NCBI GenBank assembly: GCA_021818905.1
Contig: JAKASS010000003.1
Coordinates: 1-64,000 of the forward strand
DNA from: Nanobdellota archaeon
GTDB lineage: Archaea; Nanobdellota; Nanobdellia; Parvarchaeales; Parvarchaeaceae
Direction: 5' to 3'
Length of the DNA: 64,000 nucleotides
Below the pieces are notes generated by a model. It did no database searches. It had not been told where the DNA came from and was given only the letters and a program-made list of their open reading frames with translations. A program made the position numbers and the translations under genes. Positions 15,872-54,191 of the stretch are shown in pieces. Positions within the stretch are counted from its first letter, which is position 1, and every line of letters begins with the position of its first letter.

Positions 15872-16976
15872 TACGCTTGTGCATAAGTGCTTTATAGGAT
15901 CACTGCTTCTGCAAGGATATGGCGTCTAATATCGCTAAAAACAGGGTAGAAAGGAGTGGAGGCTGCCTTGACAAACGGAGTAAACCATATGACAAGGGAT
16001 CGTCGCCTCCAGAAATGTGAGGCAGTGATAGGTAATATAGTCGACTGGAAGCAAAATGAGCGCCCTGCGCTGCTTTCAATGGACGAAGACGAGTCCGGGA
16101 GGCCTTTCCTTTATTCGGACGAGCTTATCACAAAGATAAGCTTCTTGAGGTCCATGTTCTGCGACAAGCTTATCCCCACCGAAGCTTTGACGAGGAGGCT
16201 TTACGGCAGCTCTCCAGACCATACCACGATAAGCAGGAGGCTTTACCGCCTTGATGTGAAATGGATCATCGACAAGAAACGCAGGAAAGGAAGGCTCTTG
16301 GCGATAGACGCCACAGGGATGTCCATCTGCCGTACGGGAAGCTACAGGCATTCAAAATACGGGGGAACGCCTAGATTCTGCAAACTACATGCTTTGATCG
16401 ACCCCGATACCAAAGAGATCGTGGACTTAAGGGTCACCACAGACCGCTGTCATGACAATAGGAAGTTCCGTCCCATAGTCAGGGAAGCCGCGAAAAGAGG
16501 GGACACCGTCTACGCCGACGGAGCTTATGATTCAAAGGAGAACTTTGACTATCTCGCAAGGAACGGCATCAGAAGCGGCATAAAGATAAGGAGGAACTTC
16601 TCCACCAAGGCTGGAGGGAGCTACGCCAGGCAGAAAGCCGTGATGGAGCAGTTCGGGATATCGACTGTGCGTCTTAAGGGAAGGCTCCATTTCCTGCCTA
16701 CCGAAGGGGTCGTCTTCGACAAGATAGGATACTACCAGCAAAAATGGAAGGAAAAGGTGGGATATGGAAAAAGATGGCTGGTCGAGTCCTTCTTCTCCGC
16801 CTTCAAACGCCGCTTTGGAGAGCACGTATGCTCCCGGAGATGGAGGTCTGTGCAGAACGAGCTCAAGCTGAAGGCGATGCCTTACAATAAGCTTCTCGAA
16901 ACGTAAGCCGATACGAGAAAGATGAAAGACCGCTAGCTGTGGCTATCGCCTTCTAGGCTAGTCATGCACAGGCGTA
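15872..16976 (+). mobile_element. IS5-type insertion sequence, complete copy
   Basis: The left end is TACGCTTGTGCATAAG at 15872 and the right end TATGCACAGGCGTA ends at 16976: imperfect inverted repeats around one intact-looking transposase gene, 1105 bp in all. The flanks share TT (15870-71 and 16977-78), possibly a 2-bp target duplication but too short to prove it. The right end abuts a truncated IS6-type fragment, so the element probably landed in or next to that older insertion. Relics of the same family are at 1-126, 14026, 46058, 54748 and 58800. Confidence 0.9.
15956..16906 (+). CDS. IS5-type DDE transposase
   Basis: A 316-residue transposase if read from GTG at 15956; an ATG at 15989 (MTRDRRLQ) is an equally good start. 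The catalytic residues are D118 (LLAIDATGMS), D188 (VYADGAYDS) and E277 (WLVESFFSAFKRRFGE). No frameshift or internal stop is seen, so the copy may be functional. The preceding 80 bases between the left repeat and the start codon are strongly conserved in the relics at 46058 and 58800, suggesting a needed terminal binding region or promoter. Confidence 0.92.
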   Translation: MEAALTNGVNHMTRDRRLQKCEAVIGNIVDWKQNERPALLSMDEDESGRPFLYSDELITKISFLRSMFCDKLIPTEALTRRLYGSSPDHTTISRRLYRLDVKWIIDKKRRKGRLLAIDATGMSICRTGSYRHSKYGGTPRFCKLHALIDPDTKEIVDLRVTTDRCHDNRKFRPIVREAAKRGDTVYADGAYDSKENFDYLARNGIRSGIKIRRNFSTKAGGSYARQKAVMEQFGISTVRLKGRLHFLPTEGVVFDKIGYYQQKWKEKVGYGKRWLVESFFSAFKRRFGEHVCSRRWRSVQNELKLKAMPYNKLLET

Positions 16977-26967: not shown

Positions 26968-27041
26968 ACGTTTTAAACCTTCTTTTGGCGATTATTTCTA
27001 CTTAGCTAATTTTTATTCACCTTTAAAATGTATGCCGAAAT

Positions 27042-27123
27042 GGACTCGGGGGGATTTGAACCCCCAGTCTTTCCCAATCTGGATCTTTGCCATGGGAACG
27101 CGGTGCCGTTGCGCCACGAGCCC
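27042..27123 (-). tRNA. tRNA-Ala(GGC) with probable 11-nt intron
   Basis: Read on the minus strand, a 7-bp acceptor stem GGGCTCG/CGAGTCC closes with a G3:U70 pair, the identity element of tRNA-Ala, and an A at position 73 (no encoded CCA). The T arm is GGGGG-TTCAAAT-CCCCC. Anticodon stem TTCCC/GGGAA encloses 18 nt: AT-GGC-A, then 11 extra nucleotides, then T. This fits anticodon GGC with a very short intron at the usual 37/38 position. The inner CCA could suggest tRNA-Trp, but that would need a poorer stem and conflicts with G3:U70. Confidence 0.75.
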
Positions 27124-46057: not shown

Positions 46058-46160
46058 TACGCGTGTGCATAAGTGCTTTATAGAATGGCTGCTTCTGCAA
46101 GGATATGACGTCTAATATCGCTAAAATAAAGTCGTATGGTAGTGGAGGCGACTTTACACA
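46058..46160 (+). mobile_element. left-end relic of the IS5-type element
   Basis: About 103 bases match the left end of the complete element (15872-15975), from TACGCGTGTGCATAAGTGC through GGATATGACGTCTAATATCG and the start of the transposase region (AGTGGAGGC), then similarity stops. No transposase remains. It lies in the 315-base gap before the toxin-antitoxin pair and marks the left border of the accessory island. Confidence 0.8.
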
Positions 46161-46770: not shown

Positions 46771-46815
46771 TTCTGTGGAGCAGATTGCCCAAAAATCGCT
46801 TTCGGAACTACTGGG
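46771..46815. repeat. 45-bp direct repeat, left copy
   Basis: Forty-three of 45 bases equal those at 53148-53192, beside tRNA-Leu. Core: CAGATTGCCCAAAAATC then CTTTCGGAACTACTGGG. The two copies have the same orientation and bound 6.3 kb. Just right of this copy the segment CTTTCGGA pairs with TCCGAAAG at 46826-46833, making a hairpin. Confidence 0.85.
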
Positions 46816-46886
46816 AATCAGTACCTCCGAAAGTGAAAAATAACAAACTTCTAACATATAAATAGTATTACCTACATTTAAACAAA

Positions 46887-47156
46887 ATGCAAGGAAAACA
46901 TAAAAATCATAACTTGGTAAGGTTCGCTTGGCTTCTAATTGGAATCGGCGCACTGATAGTTATACTGGATATCATTGGTCCTAGTGGTGGTTGCGCTGTG
47001 GGATTGCCGATTTTTCCAATAAATGCGACAAGCACCACAGGTTCTCAATGTGCGTCTTTAGCGGTAAATTATAATCCATATAATTGGTTTTTAGGTCTTG
47101 GGTTTGCGCTCATTATTATTGGTGCTGCAATAGAGATTGTTCTCTATTACCAATAA
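46887..47156 (+). CDS. small two-helix membrane protein
   Basis: An 89-residue protein with two hydrophobic helices (about 10-30 and 62-84) and an outer loop with two cysteines (GGCAV and QCASL). Not recognised. It is the first gene inside the direct repeats and ends two bases from the convergent transposase pseudogene. A TATA-like sequence (ACATATAAATAG) at 46856 sits about 26 nt before the start. Confidence 0.55.
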   Translation: MQGKHKNHNLVRFAWLLIGIGALIVILDIIGPSGGCAVGLPIFPINATSTTGSQCASLAVNYNPYNWFLGLGFALIIIGAAIEIVLYYQ

Positions 47157-47158
47157 AG

Positions 47159-48691
47159 TTATCCGTCTGGATTCTTAGTAGCTAAAAGTCTGATAGAAAA
47201 CATTCTAGCGGTTATCATCGTCTTAGTCGTCCTTATGCCTAAAAATGCCATAATTAGTAGGTCCACCAATATCCAACAGTTGTATAATATTACTGAAAGC
47301 ATAAAGTAGAAGTATCTTATAATATAGTTTATCGATGTCGTCTTGCCCCTGAAATTATACTTCTTTACACGATATCCTGTCTCAATCTGCCAACGCCTTC
47401 TGTACATATCCGCGATTTTCTGCGCAAAAAGGATGTCCTGCGGACCTATGTCGATGTTAGTTGCAAATCCTTGTCTGCCTCGGTCGCCTTCTATGACCGC
47501 CAAGTTGAACTTGCAATCTCCCATAACTGCATTTCTTTGTATAAATGGCGTGACTCTGGTCTTACTGTTCTTCATTGCATTATTGCTTTCCTTCATCGGC
47601 ATTATAAACTTTACGTCTAGTTTGTTTAGTCTTCTTATGCACTCAGACCCTAGAAAACCTCTATCAAGAAGTATTGTACCTATATGGATTCTTTCTTTTG
47701 CAAACGACACTAATCTTTCGACTAAATCATTCTAATCGTCTTGTGGAAAGACTGGCAGGGCGAATAAAGTTAACCTTTGACCATGATTTACTATGTCAAT
47801 TGTGATGAACTTGAAACACCATTTCGTGCCTCTTTCTGGTTTGGTGCCGATGATTGCTGGATGTTCGGGATTTCCGTAGAAGAACCAGGGTGTTGCGTCT
47901 ATTGCTAAATCTAGTTTACGGCCCAGAATCGAGCCGCCTTTCTTAGCCATTTTGAAGACCATGTCAAACAGATCATAGAATATCCTTTGTATTTCTCCGT
48001 AATCGAACTTCTTAAGGTGGTAGAATAGCGTGTCTGCGGATGGCATTCTTTTTGACGATGTTTCCGCCAATATCTTTGATCCGCCTTCTGCGAAGTTTTG
48101 AGTTGCTGCGATGTTTATAAGCAAACCAAGAAAATCATCTTCTTTAAAGACGGAGTTTTGCTTAATGTTAAAACTTAGTTTTTGTCTGAGTTTTGTCCTG
48201 ACTAACCTGAGTAGTTCTTTTTCCTTAACATTCTTGTTTTGTATTACGGAGTTCTCTTTGCGCAGTTCCTTTGACTTATTTTCTAAAGAAACGTCATCGA
48301 ATATGATGTTAAATTTATTTGTAAGTTCTTTTATTATTGCTATAACTTGATTAGCTAACTCTAAGATTTCTGGGTTTAGTGTAAAAATAAAGTGTGAAAA
48401 ATCTCGTCGCATTGGTAAAATTACTTTATCGGCATCTTTGTCGAAACCAATGTTTATTGCATCTTCAAGATGACCATTTAGATAAACTATCAGTTTTCTC
48501 TGCGACTTAATCCCTTTAATTATCATAAAAATGTAAGCTTTGATCAGCGAATCGGAAGAATATTTTCGCTTTGAGGATATTTTCGGTAATAAGTCAATTT
48601 GTTTTAAAATGTCGGATAACAGAAACATTTTGGATTTGGAACTAACAAAAATCGAACGAATTTTACGCATTAACTCGTTATTTTCTTTCAT
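47159..48691 (-). pseudogene. ISH3/IS4-like transposase interrupted by one in-frame TAG
   Basis: Two minus-strand frames, 48691-47732 and 47710-47159, are in the same frame and separated by a single amber codon at 47732-47734. Joined, they give a 510-residue DDE transposase: first Asp in LDLAIDATPWFFYGN, second in TILLDRGFLGSECI, Glu in YRRRWQIETGYRVKKYNF. The TAG falls between the first and second Asp. The coding sequence is otherwise clean, so the mutation is young or the codon is sometimes read through. I could not find convincing terminal repeats. Confidence 0.8.
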
Positions 48692-48773
48692 ACAAGTGAT
48701 TTACTTACAAGTCATTCACTTATATTATAAAAACGAAAAATATATAAGCTTTTCGCTTGTAAGTTAATAAGTG
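48692..48773. promoter_or_regulatory. operator array before the winged-helix gene
   Basis: Two head-to-tail 15-bp units, ACAAGTGATTTACTT (48692-48706) and ACAAGTCATTCACTT (48707-48721), 13 of 15 identical, and an inverted copy CTTGTAAGTTAATAAGTG at 48756-48773 that ends four bases before the ATG. The spacer has the TATA-like AAATATATAAG. Such an arrangement is typical of autoregulation by the adjacent DNA-binding protein. Confidence 0.6.
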
Positions 48774-48777
48774 TGAT

Positions 48778-49035
48778 ATGGTGAAGTATATCCCAAAATG
48801 GTTAATAAAACGTCTAAGTAAATTATGGGCAGCGTATAAAGAAAAGGAATTTACTTTTGAGGAGGCAACAAAGGCGCTGCCTGAAGACGACCCTAGAAAC
48901 TTAGCTATGGTGCTTTCTGACTTAAATAAAAGTGGGTGGATAGAAACCAAACAAGATCCAAAAAATAAGAGGAAGACCCTTTACAAAATAAAGCAAGGTT
49001 CTATCGTAAATGAGCTTATAAAAATAGAGCTTTAA
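48778..49035 (+). CDS. winged-helix regulator of the helicase-nuclease
   Basis: An 85-residue basic protein: KEFTFEEATKALPEDDPRN, LAMVLSDLNKSGWIETKQDP and KTLYKIKQGS form a winged helix (recognition helix then a beta wing). It resembles small wHTH antitoxin or repressor proteins, such as the DNA-binding half of AbiE-type systems. It lies between its likely operators and the 958-residue gene 69 bases on, whose own leader (ACTTAAGTAACTTATG) partly repeats the operator motif. Repressor of the pair is inference. Confidence 0.7.
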   Translation: MVKYIPKWLIKRLSKLWAAYKEKEFTFEEATKALPEDDPRNLAMVLSDLNKSGWIETKQDPKNKRKTLYKIKQGSIVNELIKIEL

Positions 49036-49104
49036 TTATCGTTTTAAAGCAGATGAAATTTGAAACTAAAATTAGTATTATATTAGCTTTAACTTAAGTA
49101 ACTT

Positions 49105-51981
49105 ATGGGTTACTATAGCGATTCAGAATTAATTAGAAAGCTAAAGGTAAGACAACATAAAAATTATATTTCTACAAAGGAACATAAATTTGAGGGAATT
49201 TTATTTAAAAAACGGATCACTAACCCAGACGACTTGCCTGCCGAAATAAGAAAAATGGATACATTTAATAAAATACGCAATTTTTTCCCGATACAGATTA
49301 AAGCATTCGACGCCGGAATTTTAAATCACAGAAATTTAGTACTTTGCGCACCGACTGGTATGGGAAAAACTCTACCAATAGACATTTCAGCTATTAAGAC
49401 CGTTGTTGATGGTCATAAAAAAGTAATATTTTTAGAACCTTATCTCGCAATAACGAACCAAAAGGTAGGAACGTTAGCTAATGAAACTTTAAATATAATT
49501 CCTGGACAATTTACTGGAGAAACGAATGATAATCCTTCTAGATCAAATATAATTTACGCCACCGCTGAAAAACTGTTTCTAGCGATACAAAATAGAGAAA
49601 TCTGGTTAAATGATGTTGGTTTACTAGTTGTTGATGAATGTGACATTCTGAATGATATTAACCGGGGCGCAATTCTAGAAGAAGTAATTAGTTGCTTTAT
49701 AACTCTATACAAAGATGCACAGATTGTGATGTTGTCGGCGACATTATCTAATGGAGAAGATTTGGCCAAATGGATTGGGGGAACATACATAAGTGATAAT
49801 ACGCGTAATGTTAAGATAAAATACGAACTTTATCCGACATTTGATTTCACTGTAGAAGAATTAAAAAAGATTGAAGAGCAAGAAAATCAAATCTTTATCA
49901 CATTAGAAAATCCGATAAAACCGCTAGAAAATAAAAACCCGTCTGAAAATGAGATATTAGTTGCCACCTCCACTAGAAAGGAGGCAAAAAAACTATGTTG
50001 GAAATTACTAAAATCTAGAGGTACTCACTCATCTACTCAAGACCTTGGTAGATATTTAAGTGAATTAGGAAAAAAAATAAAAAGGGAAGCAAAGTATGGG
50101 ATGGATAAGATTTCTAAGATGGTGTCTATAACCGTTCATGCTGAAGTTGCAGTTCATAACGCGGGTTTAACAAGAAAGCAAAGAACTTTAATAGAAAGCG
50201 CATTCGAAGAAAAACTTATAAAAATATTAGTATGTACCCCAACTCTAAATAGAGGAATTAATTTGCAGCTTAAAAAACTTATTTTATACAATGGAATAAA
50301 AAAAGCGGAGGGATTGATGACTGTATCAGAATTCCATCAGCTATGTGGGCGTGTTGGGAGACCTGGTCAAGAAAACGTGGGTGAGGTTATAATATGTTGC
50401 AATAGCTTTGAGGAGATGGTCGTTGCGAAGGAGAAAATAATGGGACGATATGAACTCGTTGAATCCAAATTAAAACCGCACATCGCAAGTTTTATTATTC
50501 TTCTTGTAGGTGCGGGATACTCTCTCAAGATAATAAGCCAAATTTTAATGAATACTCTATTCGCTTCTATGAATTTTGAGTCACCCATAGTTAAAGATTT
50601 TAATGAAGCGGCTTTGCTGTCTACTATAAAAAGTGCGCCAACAATTTTCGATTTAATAAATGAAACGCCAAAATTAACAAAATTCGGGGAACTATGTTTT
50701 AGGTATAGTGGCTACGAACTAAAGGATATAAAAGAACTATGTAAGTCAATAACTAAGAAAGCAAAGGATGAGACACTGAATAAAAGTGATTTAATTGAGC
50801 TAATAAACACTTTGATTTCTAAAAGAAAAAGTCAACATGCGGAATGGACTTTGCTTCTAAATGCTTGGTTAAGTGGTGATAAAAATGTTCCTAAGCCTCT
50901 AGAAACTGAAAAAACGGATTTTGGAACGAAAGACTTTAAAGAGTTTAAAAAACGATCTAAAAATATAAGTAATCTAATTTGTTCACTTATAGAATATAAT
51001 GACATTGATAAATCTTCAATTTTTTGGATATTCGGATTACCAAATTGCATTGAATTCGGGCTGGACCCTATTAAATACGGAGAGTTAGCCGCGATATCGA
51101 ATAATAGAAAGCAGGCATGTTTACTTACAGAGGGTTTTGATGGCAGCATAAAAATAGCGAGCGAAAAAACGCTTAATGAATACAGAGAGATATTAGGACA
51201 TAACTCATTTGCATCTTCTATGGGTATACTTAAAAAATTAAATAAAATATTAGGAAAACCGGAGCGAGTGAGCGTCGGCGAAGCAGTTAATTTTATTCAT
51301 TGTCCGTTGTCGTTTTTATTAGACTATTATTACAGCTTAAAGAATATGGAAATGCTAGAGAAAGATATACAAGAAAAAACAGAAATTGGGGGAAATGTAC
51401 ATAAATATATACATAAGTTCTGTGAATATTGGAATCACGTAGGAACGATAGTAAAGGCAAAAGGGCTTACATTAGACTTAATTGGAAGAGATTCTCCTAA
51501 TAATATTGACGAAATAACCTCTGCTTTTAATAATTTCTGTAATTTTTTACTATCAAATAATTTTAAAGCTGCGAACTCCTCTGAAAAAGTTATAGAAAGT
51601 AAAAAATTGGAAATTCAAGGCATATTAGATTTAGTGCTTTTGGATTATAATAATTATTTAACATTAATAGAAATAAAATCTGGCGACTTTCAGGAATACA
51701 GATATGAACAATGGGACCAAAATCAAATTTATTTGTATTATCTTATTTTAAGAGACTGCGACATAGATATAAAAGATGCCTTTGTTTTATATTTAAAACC
51801 TCTAACTGCGTCATATGTTGATTTAAGCGAAGAAAAATTACGAAAAATTTCTTCTTATATAGGAGCGATGCGTAATTTAATGAGTCGCGTGGACGCACTT
51901 AAAGATGAGAATCTAAGAGGACTTTGTACTTGCAGAAACTCTTCTCATAAATGCGTATGCAATCAACTTTTTGATGAATAA
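49105..51981 (+). CDS. Ski2-like helicase fused to Cas4/RecB-like nuclease
   Basis: A 958-residue fusion. Helicase: FPIQ (61-64), Walker A APTGMGKT (82-89), Walker B VVDECD (175-180), SAT (211-213), CTPTLNRGIN (377-386) and motif VI HQLCGRVGRPG (411-421), then an unassigned helical part to about 720. Nuclease: C733 (FIHCPLSF), H766 (GGNVHKYIH), D842 (GILDLVLL), E856-x-K858 (LIEIKSG), QWDQNQIYLYY (869-879), and C941, C943, C950, C952 for an iron-sulfur cluster, the Cas4/AddB pattern. It should unwind and degrade DNA. The coding sequence is visibly AT-rich and rich in AAA, ATA and TTA codons, unlike the housekeeping genes, so it was probably acquired by transfer. A defence role is inference. 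Confidence 0.85.
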   Translation: MGYYSDSELIRKLKVRQHKNYISTKEHKFEGILFKKRITNPDDLPAEIRKMDTFNKIRNFFPIQIKAFDAGILNHRNLVLCAPTGMGKTLPIDISAIKTVVDGHKKVIFLEPYLAITNQKVGTLANETLNIIPGQFTGETNDNPSRSNIIYATAEKLFLAIQNREIWLNDVGLLVVDECDILNDINRGAILEEVISCFITLYKDAQIVMLSATLSNGEDLAKWIGGTYISDNTRNVKIKYELYPTFDFTVEELKKIEEQENQIFITLENPIKPLENKNPSENEILVATSTRKEAKKLCWKLLKSRGTHSSTQDLGRYLSELGKKIKREAKYGMDKISKMVSITVHAEVAVHNAGLTRKQRTLIESAFEEKLIKILVCTPTLNRGINLQLKKLILYNGIKKAEGLMTVSEFHQLCGRVGRPGQENVGEVIICCNSFEEMVVAKEKIMGRYELVESKLKPHIASFIILLVGAGYSLKIISQILMNTLFASMNFESPIVKDFNEAALLSTIKSAPTIFDLINETPKLTKFGELCFRYSGYELKDIKELCKSITKKAKDETLNKSDLIELINTLISKRKSQHAEWTLLLNAWLSGDKNVPKPLETEKTDFGTKDFKEFKKRSKNISNLICSLIEYNDIDKSSIFWIFGLPNCIEFGLDPIKYGELAAISNNRKQACLLTEGFDGSIKIASEKTLNEYREILGHNSFASSMGILKKLNKILGKPERVSVGEAVNFIHCPLSFLLDYYYSLKNMEMLEKDIQEKTEIGGNVHKYIHKFCEYWNHVGTIVKAKGLTLDLIGRDSPNNIDEITSAFNNFCNFLLSNNFKAANSSEKVIESKKLEIQGILDLVLLDYNNYLTLIEIKSGDFQEYRYEQWDQNQIYLYYLILRDCDIDIKDAFVLYLKPLTASYVDLSEEKLRKISSYIGAMRNLMSRVDALKDENLRGLCTCRNSSHKCVCNQLFDE

Positions 51982-52057
51982 ATCTTATATTATTTAATTT
52001 TAATGCCAACGCTCTCTGGTCCAATTATTATCTGAGCACAGAATTAACACATGGTGC

Positions 52058-53026
52058 TCAGTTTTCATAGGTTCTCCTATTTTTTAGCGCCATTTGTATT
52101 TCGCTTATTTTTCGCTTACTAAAACCATTAGGTTGTTTGATATCCAAGAAAGCTTTTATAGCAACTGCTTCTTTTCCTGGAAGACAGTAAATTGCCACCT
52201 TGCCGATTATTACTGATTTAATGAGTGCATTTTTCCCTATTCGCTTGAATATCATTATATTTTTGCGGTTAGATATTACATACCCTCTGTTTATCAGATT
52301 GCACAGGATTTGAAAATAAACTCCGCCTATCCTACTGTGTTTTCCTTTTAAGTCAGACGTCCACCTGACTATTGTCGGATAGCTCACTTTTAGCATGTTA
52401 GATAGTTCAGTCTTCTGAACACCGCTCTTTATCAGCCGTCTTACCTTTTTCTTAAACTTGTCTGGATACCTTTTGAGTTCTGGCGCGCGGTTTAGCCACT
52501 TGTTAAGGGTTTTTAGGTTTATTCCTAGCTCCGCTGCGGTCTTAAGTCTGGACTTTCCTGAAGCGACTAAATCTAGCGCTTTTTTTCTAAATTCGTCCGT
52601 ATAGATTACTTGCTTGTTTGATATCGGTATGTTCCATCTGTTTATAGTGCTTATCGCTATTCCAAGACGCCCAGCCGTTTCGGTCCTGCTGAGCCCAGAA
52701 GAAAGCATTTCTACGGCTCTTTGTTTTACGCTTTCTGGTAACCTGTGATAGGTTGAAATGCCATAAAGCCATTTTGCAAGAGTTCCGTACGGGATGCCAA
52801 GTTCCGCTGATATTTTGTATCTCGACTTGCCTTCTAAAGCAAGGGCTTTAGCTTTCTCTTTTACCTCTTGCGGATAAATTCGTGCGTTAATACTTGGTAT
52901 CTGCCAAGTACTTAACGTGCCTAGGGGTACACCTAATTGCAGAGCAGTAGCATATTTTGTCATTCCTGACGTTATAAGTTCCTTTGCTTTGCTTCTGATA
53001 TCGTCGGGATACTTGCTTCCTTTCAT
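52058..53026 (-). CDS. protein with five tandem helix-turn-helix repeats
   Basis: A 322-residue protein. Five units of about 45 residues (near 6-41, 51-88, 96-132, 142-178, 187-224) each read like RSKAKELITSGMTKYATALQ followed by LGVPLGTLSTW: a homeodomain-like HTH ending in a tryptophan. The C-terminal 95 residues (FQILCNLINRGYVISNRKNI, KVAIYCLPGKEAVAIKAFLD) form an unknown, probably alpha/beta domain. Single HTHs of this type occur in transposases, but five in a row without a DDE core is unusual. It is beside the right direct repeat, where an integrase or excision protein often sits. Confidence 0.7.
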   Translation of the reverse strand: MKGSKYPDDIRSKAKELITSGMTKYATALQLGVPLGTLSTWQIPSINARIYPQEVKEKAKALALEGKSRYKISAELGIPYGTLAKWLYGISTYHRLPESVKQRAVEMLSSGLSRTETAGRLGIAISTINRWNIPISNKQVIYTDEFRKKALDLVASGKSRLKTAAELGINLKTLNKWLNRAPELKRYPDKFKKKVRRLIKSGVQKTELSNMLKVSYPTIVRWTSDLKGKHSRIGGVYFQILCNLINRGYVISNRKNIMIFKRIGKNALIKSVIIGKVAIYCLPGKEAVAIKAFLDIKQPNGFSKRKISEIQMALKNRRTYEN

Positions 53027-53147
53027 AGTATTTCATGAAAACGCATATTAAAACCGTCTTCGGTCGTTGCCCAAAACAGGCTATTTTTAGAGGGAGCTTT
53101 TTGCGAACCGATTTTCAGAAATGGGCACTGGCGGGCAATCAGTAACG

Positions 53148-53192
53148 TTCTGTGAAGCAGATTGCCCAAAAATCACTTTCGGAACTACTGGG
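53148..53192. repeat. 45-bp direct repeat, right copy
   Basis: Second copy of the repeat at 46771-46815 (two G/A differences), ending four bases before the 3' end of the tRNA-Leu gene. Its start also pairs with upstream sequence: GGGCAATC (53133-53140) and GATTGCCC (53160-53167) make an 8-bp hairpin. Confidence 0.85.
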
Positions 53193-53196
53193 GAAT

Positions 53197-53280
53197 GCAG
53201 GGAGAGGGATTTGAACCCTCGAAGGCCTAAGCCACTAGCCCCTGAAGCTAGCACGTTTGACCGGGCTTCGCTATCCCTGC
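53197..53280 (-). tRNA. tRNA-Leu(CAG)
   Basis: An 84-nt type II tRNA. Acceptor stem GCAGGGA/TCCCTGC, D arm with CCCGGTCAAA, anticodon stem CTAGC/GCTAG around loop TTCAGGG (anticodon CAG), a long variable arm (TGGCTTAGGCCTTCG) and T arm GAGGG-TTCAAAT-CCCTC. No intron and no encoded CCA. A weak TATA-like AGATATAATA lies about 10 bases upstream. Confidence 0.93.
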
Positions 53281-54135: not shown

Positions 54136-54191
54136 GCCTAAGCCACTGGCCCCTGAAGCTAGCACATTTGACCGGGCTTCGCTATCCCTGC
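54136..54191 (-). pseudogene. partial duplicate of tRNA-Leu, 5' two-thirds
   Basis: Fifty-six nucleotides match the 5' part of tRNA-Leu(CAG) with two substitutions: acceptor strand, D arm, anticodon arm and part of the variable arm. The T arm and 3' acceptor strand are absent. A good TATA box (CTTTAAATAAATT on the minus strand) lies about 30 bases upstream, better than that of the intact gene, so this may be the original 5' end displaced by an insertion. Confidence 0.85.

What the first reader, a model, noticed from the sequence alone, without database searches (positions are those of the whole stretch)
48692..51981. Winged-helix regulator plus a Ski2-helicase/Cas4-nuclease fusion: candidate undescribed defence module
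Seen: an 85-aa wHTH protein behind a repeated operator, then a 958-aa single chain with complete SF2 motifs (82-89, 175-180, 211-213, 411-421) and a C-terminal RecB-type nuclease (H766, D842, E856, K858) with Cys at 733, 941, 943, 950 and 952. Known: helicase plus PD-(D/E)XK with Fe-S occurs in Dna2, AddAB and Cas4 contexts, but here the helicase is Ski2/HelQ-like and comes first. AT-rich, transferred-looking, next to toxin-antitoxin genes, a transposase and a tRNA. Inference: a DNA-degrading anti-plasmid or anti-virus system under tight repression.
Basis: partly seen in the sequence, partly recalled or inferred. Interest (0 to 1): 0.9.

Follow-up and report, generated by a model that had tools for sequence, protein, structure and literature searches.

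The report
Helicase-nuclease carried by archaeal tRNA-targeting transposon
An archaeal gene that joins a DNA-unwinding motor to a DNA-cutting domain rides, probably as a defence gene, in a jumping element that lands just behind tRNA genes and whose relatives mostly carry restriction-modification systems in the same place.

Summary
An 85-aa winged-helix protein (48778-49035) is followed by one 958-aa chain: a Hel308/Ski2-type SF2 helicase core plus a C-terminal PDDEXK_1 (RecB/Cas4-like) nuclease domain, with the named residues present. The interpretation needs correction. All seven confident wHTH homologues lie divergently next to an ISH3-like transposase, not next to another helicase-nuclease, so the wHTH belongs to a mobile element. 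The gene sits in a 6.4-kb unit (46819-53190) with 18-bp inverted repeats, 5-bp flanks and an empty site in a sister species, 5 bp from the 3' end of tRNA-Leu. Genus-wide, 13 of 46 such ends lie 3-7 bp behind tRNA genes (random positions 0.26%). Sibling elements carry type II, IIG and III restriction-modification genes, three of them directly behind the wHTH. Most likely: a single-chain helicase-nuclease, probably anti-invader defence cargo of an ISH3-derived archaeal transposon that behaves like Tn7. Defence is inferred, not shown. Main rival: a replication/recombination enzyme, because lipothrixvirus AFV8 encodes the same two activities as adjacent genes in the same order. No other fused copy was found. 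New variant of a known kind; the transposon family is the more surprising part.

The parts
46771..46815 (+). Left copy of a 45-bp repeat; read as the relic right end of an earlier element pushed away by a later insertion at the same spot (inference)
   Evidence: 96% identical to 53148-53192, no other close copy in the window; contains an end motif at 46798-46813
46814..46818 (.). GGAAT, left 5-bp flank (target duplication, one base off the right flank)
   Evidence: ISH3 duplications are 4-5 bp (PMC2266710)
46819..46836 (+). Left terminal inverted repeat CAGTACCTCCGAAAGTGA
   Evidence: inverted pair with 53173-53190, 16 of 18; motif genus-wide
46887..47156 (+). Small ORF of 89 aa, probably membrane protein, no family
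47159..48691 (-). ISH3-like DDE transposase, interrupted by one in-frame TAG (47732-47734)
   Evidence: DDE_Tnp_1 3e-12, ISH3 8e-14, TAG
48692..48777 (.). Divergent promoter/operator region with 16-bp direct repeat 48692-48707/48707-48722
48778..49035 (+). 85-aa winged-helix protein, partner of the transposase
   Evidence: 7 of 7 homologues divergent from a transposase
49105..51981 (+). 958-aa helicase-nuclease (element cargo)
49288..50367 (+). SF2 helicase core (DEAD 62-216, Helicase_C 343-421)
51265..51954 (+). PDDEXK_1 nuclease domain (721-950)
52058..53026 (-). 322-aa protein with several helix-turn-helix units, conserved tRNA-side gene of the element family; target selector by inference
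53148..53192 (+). Right copy of the 45-bp repeat (element right end)
53173..53190 (-). Right terminal inverted repeat (CAGTAGTTCCGAAAGTGA on the - strand)
53191..53195 (.). GGGAA, right 5-bp flank between the element end and the tRNA 3' end
53196..53280 (-). tRNA-Leu(CAG), the landmark of the insertion

Best explanation
The 958-aa protein is a single-chain ATP-driven DNA translocase/helicase with a Cas4/RecB-type nuclease at its C-terminus. It is passenger cargo of a 6.4-kb ISH3-derived transposon inserted 5 bp behind a tRNA gene. Shown: domains, catalytic residues, element borders, empty site in a sister species, wHTH-transposase pairing, restriction-modification genes in sibling elements. 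Inferred: the wHTH represses the divergent promoters (transposase and cargo); the multi-HTH protein helps choose the tRNA site; the helicase loads on invading or broken DNA, moves along it (3'-5' by analogy with Hel308) and feeds a strand to the nuclease, which degrades foreign DNA. No methylase accompanies it, so self is probably spared by recognition of DNA ends, ssDNA or replication intermediates, as in RecBCD or Hachiman, rather than by DNA marks.
For: Domains and active-site residues. Separate ordinary Hel308 in the same genome, so not the housekeeping copy. Element with inverted repeats and 5-bp flanks; empty site in G087, G375 and G381. End motif 63 hits in 28 genomes against 14 for the reversed control; 13 of 46 sites 3-7 bp behind tRNA 3' ends against 0.26% at random. 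wHTH next to the transposase in 7 of 7. In the slot behind the wHTH: D12 methylase (G345), methylase plus ResIII helicase (G054, G179). Other siblings: TdeIII R-M, two D12 methylases, Eco57I-type enzyme. Literature: PDDEXK_1 nucleases fused to UvrD in defence loci (PMC5704561); defence cargo and downstream-of-tRNA insertion in bacterial Tn7-like elements (PMC8649781).
Against: No activity is shown and no homologue of the fusion was found, so function rests on company. Two wHTH-transposase loci carry an AN1-finger membrane protein and G380 carries non-defence genes. Fold prediction failed. The same helicase-nuclease pair occurs in a virus. The local transposase is broken by a TAG.
Confidence: 0.55

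Rival explanations
1. A replication, recombination or repair enzyme captured from an archaeal virus or plasmid: helicase and Cas4-like nuclease process DNA ends or recombination intermediates for a mobile element, not against invaders.
For: AFV8 (lipothrixvirus) encodes a Hel308-like helicase (ORF593) overlapping ORF203, a PDDEXK_1/Cas4-like nuclease, in the same order. The best PHROG match of the query is a viral helicase family (E 7e-52).
Against: Identity to the viral helicase is only 23% and the nucleases show no BLASTP match. No replication gene accompanies it in the element, and siblings carry restriction-modification genes in its place.
Confidence: 0.25
2. A fused or degenerate Hachiman-type system: a Ski2-like sensor helicase that holds its nuclease in check and releases it on DNA damage.
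For: PADLOC HamB profiles are the best defence matches (E 3e-30); Hachiman is a helicase-nuclease complex that senses DNA damage (PMC12278908).
Against: HamB matches are confined to the helicase core, and Hel308 profiles score better (E 2e-62). None of the neighbouring proteins scanned matches HamA, and the nuclease here is PDDEXK_1/Cas4-like.
Confidence: 0.1
3. A transposition accessory of the element (nuclease for ends, helicase for target or repair).
For: It lies inside the element between the transposase and the multi-HTH gene.
Against: Sibling elements with the same ends, transposase and multi-HTH gene lack it.
Confidence: 0.06

Closest known systems
Hel308/HelQ (archaeal Ski2-type DNA helicase)
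   Same: Helicase core, about 31% identity over 440 residues to Hel308 of relatives
   Different: Far below the equivalog cut-offs; no Pfam match to Hel308 domain 4 or its winged-helix domain; carries a nuclease; the genome has its own Hel308
Lipothrixvirus helicase plus Cas4-like nuclease gene pair (AFV8 ORF593-ORF203)
   Same: Same two activities in the same order
   Different: Two genes, very distant sequence, viral genome
UvrD-Cas4-like (pfam12705) fusions in defence loci (PMC5704561)
   Same: Same nuclease family fused behind a helicase; defence contexts
   Different: Their helicase is SF1 UvrD, here SF2 Hel308-like
Hachiman (HamAB)
   Same: Ski2-like helicase with a nuclease
   Different: Separate HamA nuclease of another family; none found here
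ISH3 insertion sequences
   Same: CRGT-type ends, about 5-bp duplication, Y-2-R-3-E-3-R motif, archaeal
   Different: 6.4 kb with cargo instead of 1.2-1.5 kb; transposases below the NCBIfam cut-off
Tn7-like transposons (bacteria)
   Same: By behaviour: safe-site insertion downstream of tRNAs, defence cargo, stacked insertions, a DNA-binding accessory protein (role inferred here)
   Different: Other transposase family; Tn7-like elements were reported absent from archaea (PMC8649781)

Membership tests
Hel308 | NCBIfam Hel308 equivalog score above cut-off | tested here: not met
   189 bits against 1200
Hel308 | Domain 4 (PF21280) and winged-helix HTH_61 (PF20470) | tested here: not met
   no Pfam match at E <= 1; both match in the Methanomethylovorans plasmid helicase L007
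PDDEXK_1 (PF12705) nuclease | Score above gathering cut-off, catalytic H, D, E-x-K | tested here: met
   37.8 against 22 bits; residues align
Cas4 (TIGR00372) | Equivalog score above cut-off | tested here: not met
   42.4 against 65 bits
Cas4-type Fe-S cluster | Four cysteines with Cas4/RecB spacing | tested here: inconclusive
   C733, C943, C952 align; third cysteine shifted
UvrD-Cas4-like defence fusion | SF1 UvrD helicase | tested here: not met
   SF2 DEAD/Helicase_C domains
Hachiman | HamA partner gene | tested here: not met
   no HamA-type match among the neighbouring proteins scanned
DdmD-type helicase-nuclease | Sequence relationship to DdmD, with a DdmE partner | tested here: inconclusive
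   not among the 60 solved structures shown of 81 matched; no structure model
ISH3 family | Ends CRGT, 4-5 bp duplication, Y-2-R-3-E-3-R motif | tested here: met
   CAGT ends; flanks GGAAT/GGGAA, one base off; YRRRWQIETGYR
ISH3 family | Size 1.2-1.5 kb and NCBIfam ISH3 score above cut-off | tested here: not met
   6372 bp; sibling transposases 106-162 against 225 bits
Tn7-like | TnsB-type transposase | tested here: not met
   transposase matches DDE_Tnp_1/ISH3 only
Tn7-like | Site-specific insertion with defence cargo (behaviour only) | tested here: met
   13 of 46 ends 3-7 bp behind tRNA 3' ends against 0.26% at random; R-M cargo

The most novel reading that the evidence does not exclude
Archaeal ISH3-type insertion sequences evolved independently into Tn7-like, tRNA-3'-end-targeting transposons, with a multi-HTH target selector and a wHTH regulator, that collect defence genes; the helicase-nuclease is a new single-protein defence system among their cargo that needs no methylase or partner.
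Probability: 0.4. Interest if true: 0.8.

Novelty: new variant of a known kind. Interest (0 to 1): 0.62.

Why it matters
If right, a small archaeal genome spreads restriction and other DNA-degrading systems on its own kind of site-specific transposon, a lifestyle reported for bacterial Tn7 relatives but stated to be missing from archaea (PMC8649781). The element borders and the tRNA landmark give a concrete way to find further unknown archaeal defence genes: read what lies between transposase and multi-HTH gene. The helicase-nuclease is one such candidate and is compact enough to test directly.

Tried and rejected
Homologues: pattern scans of genome and viral contigs, tblastn of phages and plasmids, and 371 genomes of the same phylum gave no second fusion. 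Five long PDDEXK_1 ORFs of the phylum show no similarity to the query helicase, and one long Hel308 ORF has an intein-like insertion. The 45-bp direct repeat was first read as integrase att sites; rejected because no integrase was seen and inverted repeats with 5-bp flanks fit a DDE transposon better. Helicase tree: query on a long branch, placement unresolved. The middle region 490-720 stays unassigned. A profile from solo RecB-like proteins of the phylum matched only weakly (6-7 bits), so the nuclease call rests on the Pfam, NCBIfam and PADLOC profiles. An alignment of mixed helicases was too diverse to scan with.

Full report
Observation. The 958-aa chain has a DEAD domain (62-216), Helicase_C (343-421) and a nearly full-length PDDEXK_1 domain (721-950). 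The best NCBIfam models for the helicase half are archaeal Hel308-type helicases (E 2e-62), but the scores are far below the equivalog cut-offs; the best solved structures are archaeal Ski2-type/Hel308 helicases. The genome has an ordinary Hel308 of its own on another contig. H766, D842 and E856-x-K858 align with the active-site residues of RecB-like proteins, as do C733, C943 and C952; the remaining cysteine spacing is unusual, so an Fe-S cluster is possible but not established. Structure prediction without relatives failed.

No sister fusion. Pattern scans of genome and viral contigs, tblastn against phage and plasmid records, and 371 genomes of the same phylum gave no second Hel308-like/PDDEXK_1 fusion. 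Absence is limited to these collections and sensitivities; genomes outside the phylum were covered only by a short-pattern scan, and metagenomes were not available.

The wHTH belongs to the transposase. Seven homologues of the wHTH with E below 1e-12 (the window copy included) were found among 55 relatives, and in all seven an ISH3-like transposase gene starts on the other strand right next to it. What follows the wHTH differs: the helicase-nuclease here; a D12 adenine methylase in G345, 5 nt behind; a DNA methylase plus a ResIII-type helicase gene (type III R-M-like) in G054, 17 nt behind, and again in G179, overlapping by 8 nt; an AN1-finger protein in G000:C3 (the AN1 domain was checked by Pfam in the related G000:C18 protein). 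So the wHTH looks like an element-level regulator in front of an exchangeable cargo operon. Binding is not shown.

The element. The window copy is bounded by CAGTACCTCCGAAAGTGA (46819-46836) and, inverted, CAGTAGTTCCGAAAGTGA (53173-53190), with GGAAT before and GGGAA after, one base off a perfect 5-bp duplication. ISH3 elements are described with ends CRGT, about 5-bp duplications and a Y-2-R-3-E-3-R transposase motif (PMC2266710); all three fit (YRRRWQIETGYR). But the element is 6372 bp, not 1.2-1.5 kb, and intact sibling transposases stay below the NCBIfam ISH3 cut-off (106-162 against 225 bits), so this is an ISH3-related group rather than a typical member. The end motif occurs 63 times in 28 genomes of the genus against 14 for the reversed control. 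Of 46 distinct sites in the loci read, 13 have their outer end 3-7 bp behind the 3' end of a tRNA gene (Leu, Val, Lys, and intron-bearing Cys and Ser), all in one orientation; random positions in the same loci do so in 0.26%. At four loci, the window among them, two such ends stand back to back with a 5-bp gap, as expected from repeated insertion at one spot.

Empty site. In G375 the phosphatase gene, tRNA-Leu and the adenylosuccinate synthetase gene follow each other directly; in G087 tRNA-Leu is followed by one diverged copy of the repeat and then the PemK gene that flanks the element in the window; in G381 the synthetase gene lies next to the sequence that follows the island. Removing 46819-53195 from the window gives the G087 arrangement. 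The whole interval between the synthetase gene and about 54195 is a hot spot with toxin-antitoxin genes.

Sibling elements. Complete or near-complete siblings have the transposase at one side and a multi-HTH gene at the other. Two have long direct repeats at their ends (117 bp in G383:C22, 192 bp in G000:C22). Cargo: D12 methylase, TdeIII restriction enzyme and N4/N6 methylase (G383:C22); two D12-type methylases (G000:C3); an Eco57I/N6 methylase (G000:C22); homologues of the TdeIII enzyme and its methylase in G000:C6. Five of the nine strong D12 methylases in the genus lie in such contexts. Some siblings carry other genes (G380:C3, G000:C18), so defence is the main but not the only cargo. The multi-HTH protein as target selector is my inference from its position near the tRNA-side end and its DNA-binding units.

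Function. Shown: an SF2 helicase core and a PD-(D/E)XK domain (by profile) in one chain, carried as cargo. Most likely: an ATP-driven translocase that feeds DNA to its nuclease, used against invading DNA. Support is by company and by analogy with UvrD-Cas4-like fusions in defence loci (PMC5704561), type III restriction enzymes and Hachiman (PMC12278908). The chief rival is a DNA-processing enzyme of viral or plasmid origin: AFV8 encodes a Hel308-like helicase overlapping a PDDEXK_1/Cas4-like nuclease gene in the same order, although sequence identity is low. A fused Hachiman is less likely because HamB resemblance is confined to the helicase core and no HamA was seen. A transposition role is unlikely because siblings lack the gene. 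The helicase tree does not decide its origin.

Novelty. A Hel308-like SF2 plus PDDEXK_1 fusion was not found described in the papers searched, but PDDEXK-helicase fusions as such are known, hence 'new variant'. The transposon family is the more surprising part: Tn7-like elements carry defence cargo and insert downstream of tRNAs but were not found in archaea (PMC8649781); composite transposons with passenger genes were listed as undetected in archaea in 2019 (PMC6563490); passenger genes were not recorded for ISH3 in 2008 (PMC2266710). The paper searches cover open-licence papers only.

Noticed in passing
window 54136-54191 and 53225-53280: A 56-bp 5' fragment of tRNA-Leu is repeated (96%) 911 bp from the intact gene and brackets a HEPN/nucleotidyltransferase pair, as if that pair were a small insertion of its own.
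   Followed up: partly
window 46058-46160 and 15872-15973: A repeat of about 70-100 bp with at least seven further copies (76-94%) in the genome, no gene assigned.
   Followed up: no
window 47732-47734: The local transposase is open over 510 codons except for one in-frame TAG; siblings are intact.
   Followed up: partly
L191 3013-5402: AFV8 helicase gene overlaps a PDDEXK_1/Cas4-like nuclease gene in the same order as the domains of the query.
   Followed up: partly
L009 5902-8703 and L189 4914-7739: Haloarchaeal plasmid helicases of 933-941 aa; L009 has an ALECKSK stretch in its C-terminal part that could be another PD-(D/E)XK nuclease, without a Pfam match.
   Followed up: no
L079 168-3818: A Hel308 ORF of 1216 aa with an intein-like insertion in the helicase core.
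   Followed up: no
window 27041-27123: A second tRNA found by Rfam but not by ARAGORN without introns.
   Followed up: no
L149 2825-3502: A solo PDDEXK_1 nuclease gene lies in the same gene cluster as the type III-like restriction genes behind the wHTH in G179.
   Followed up: no
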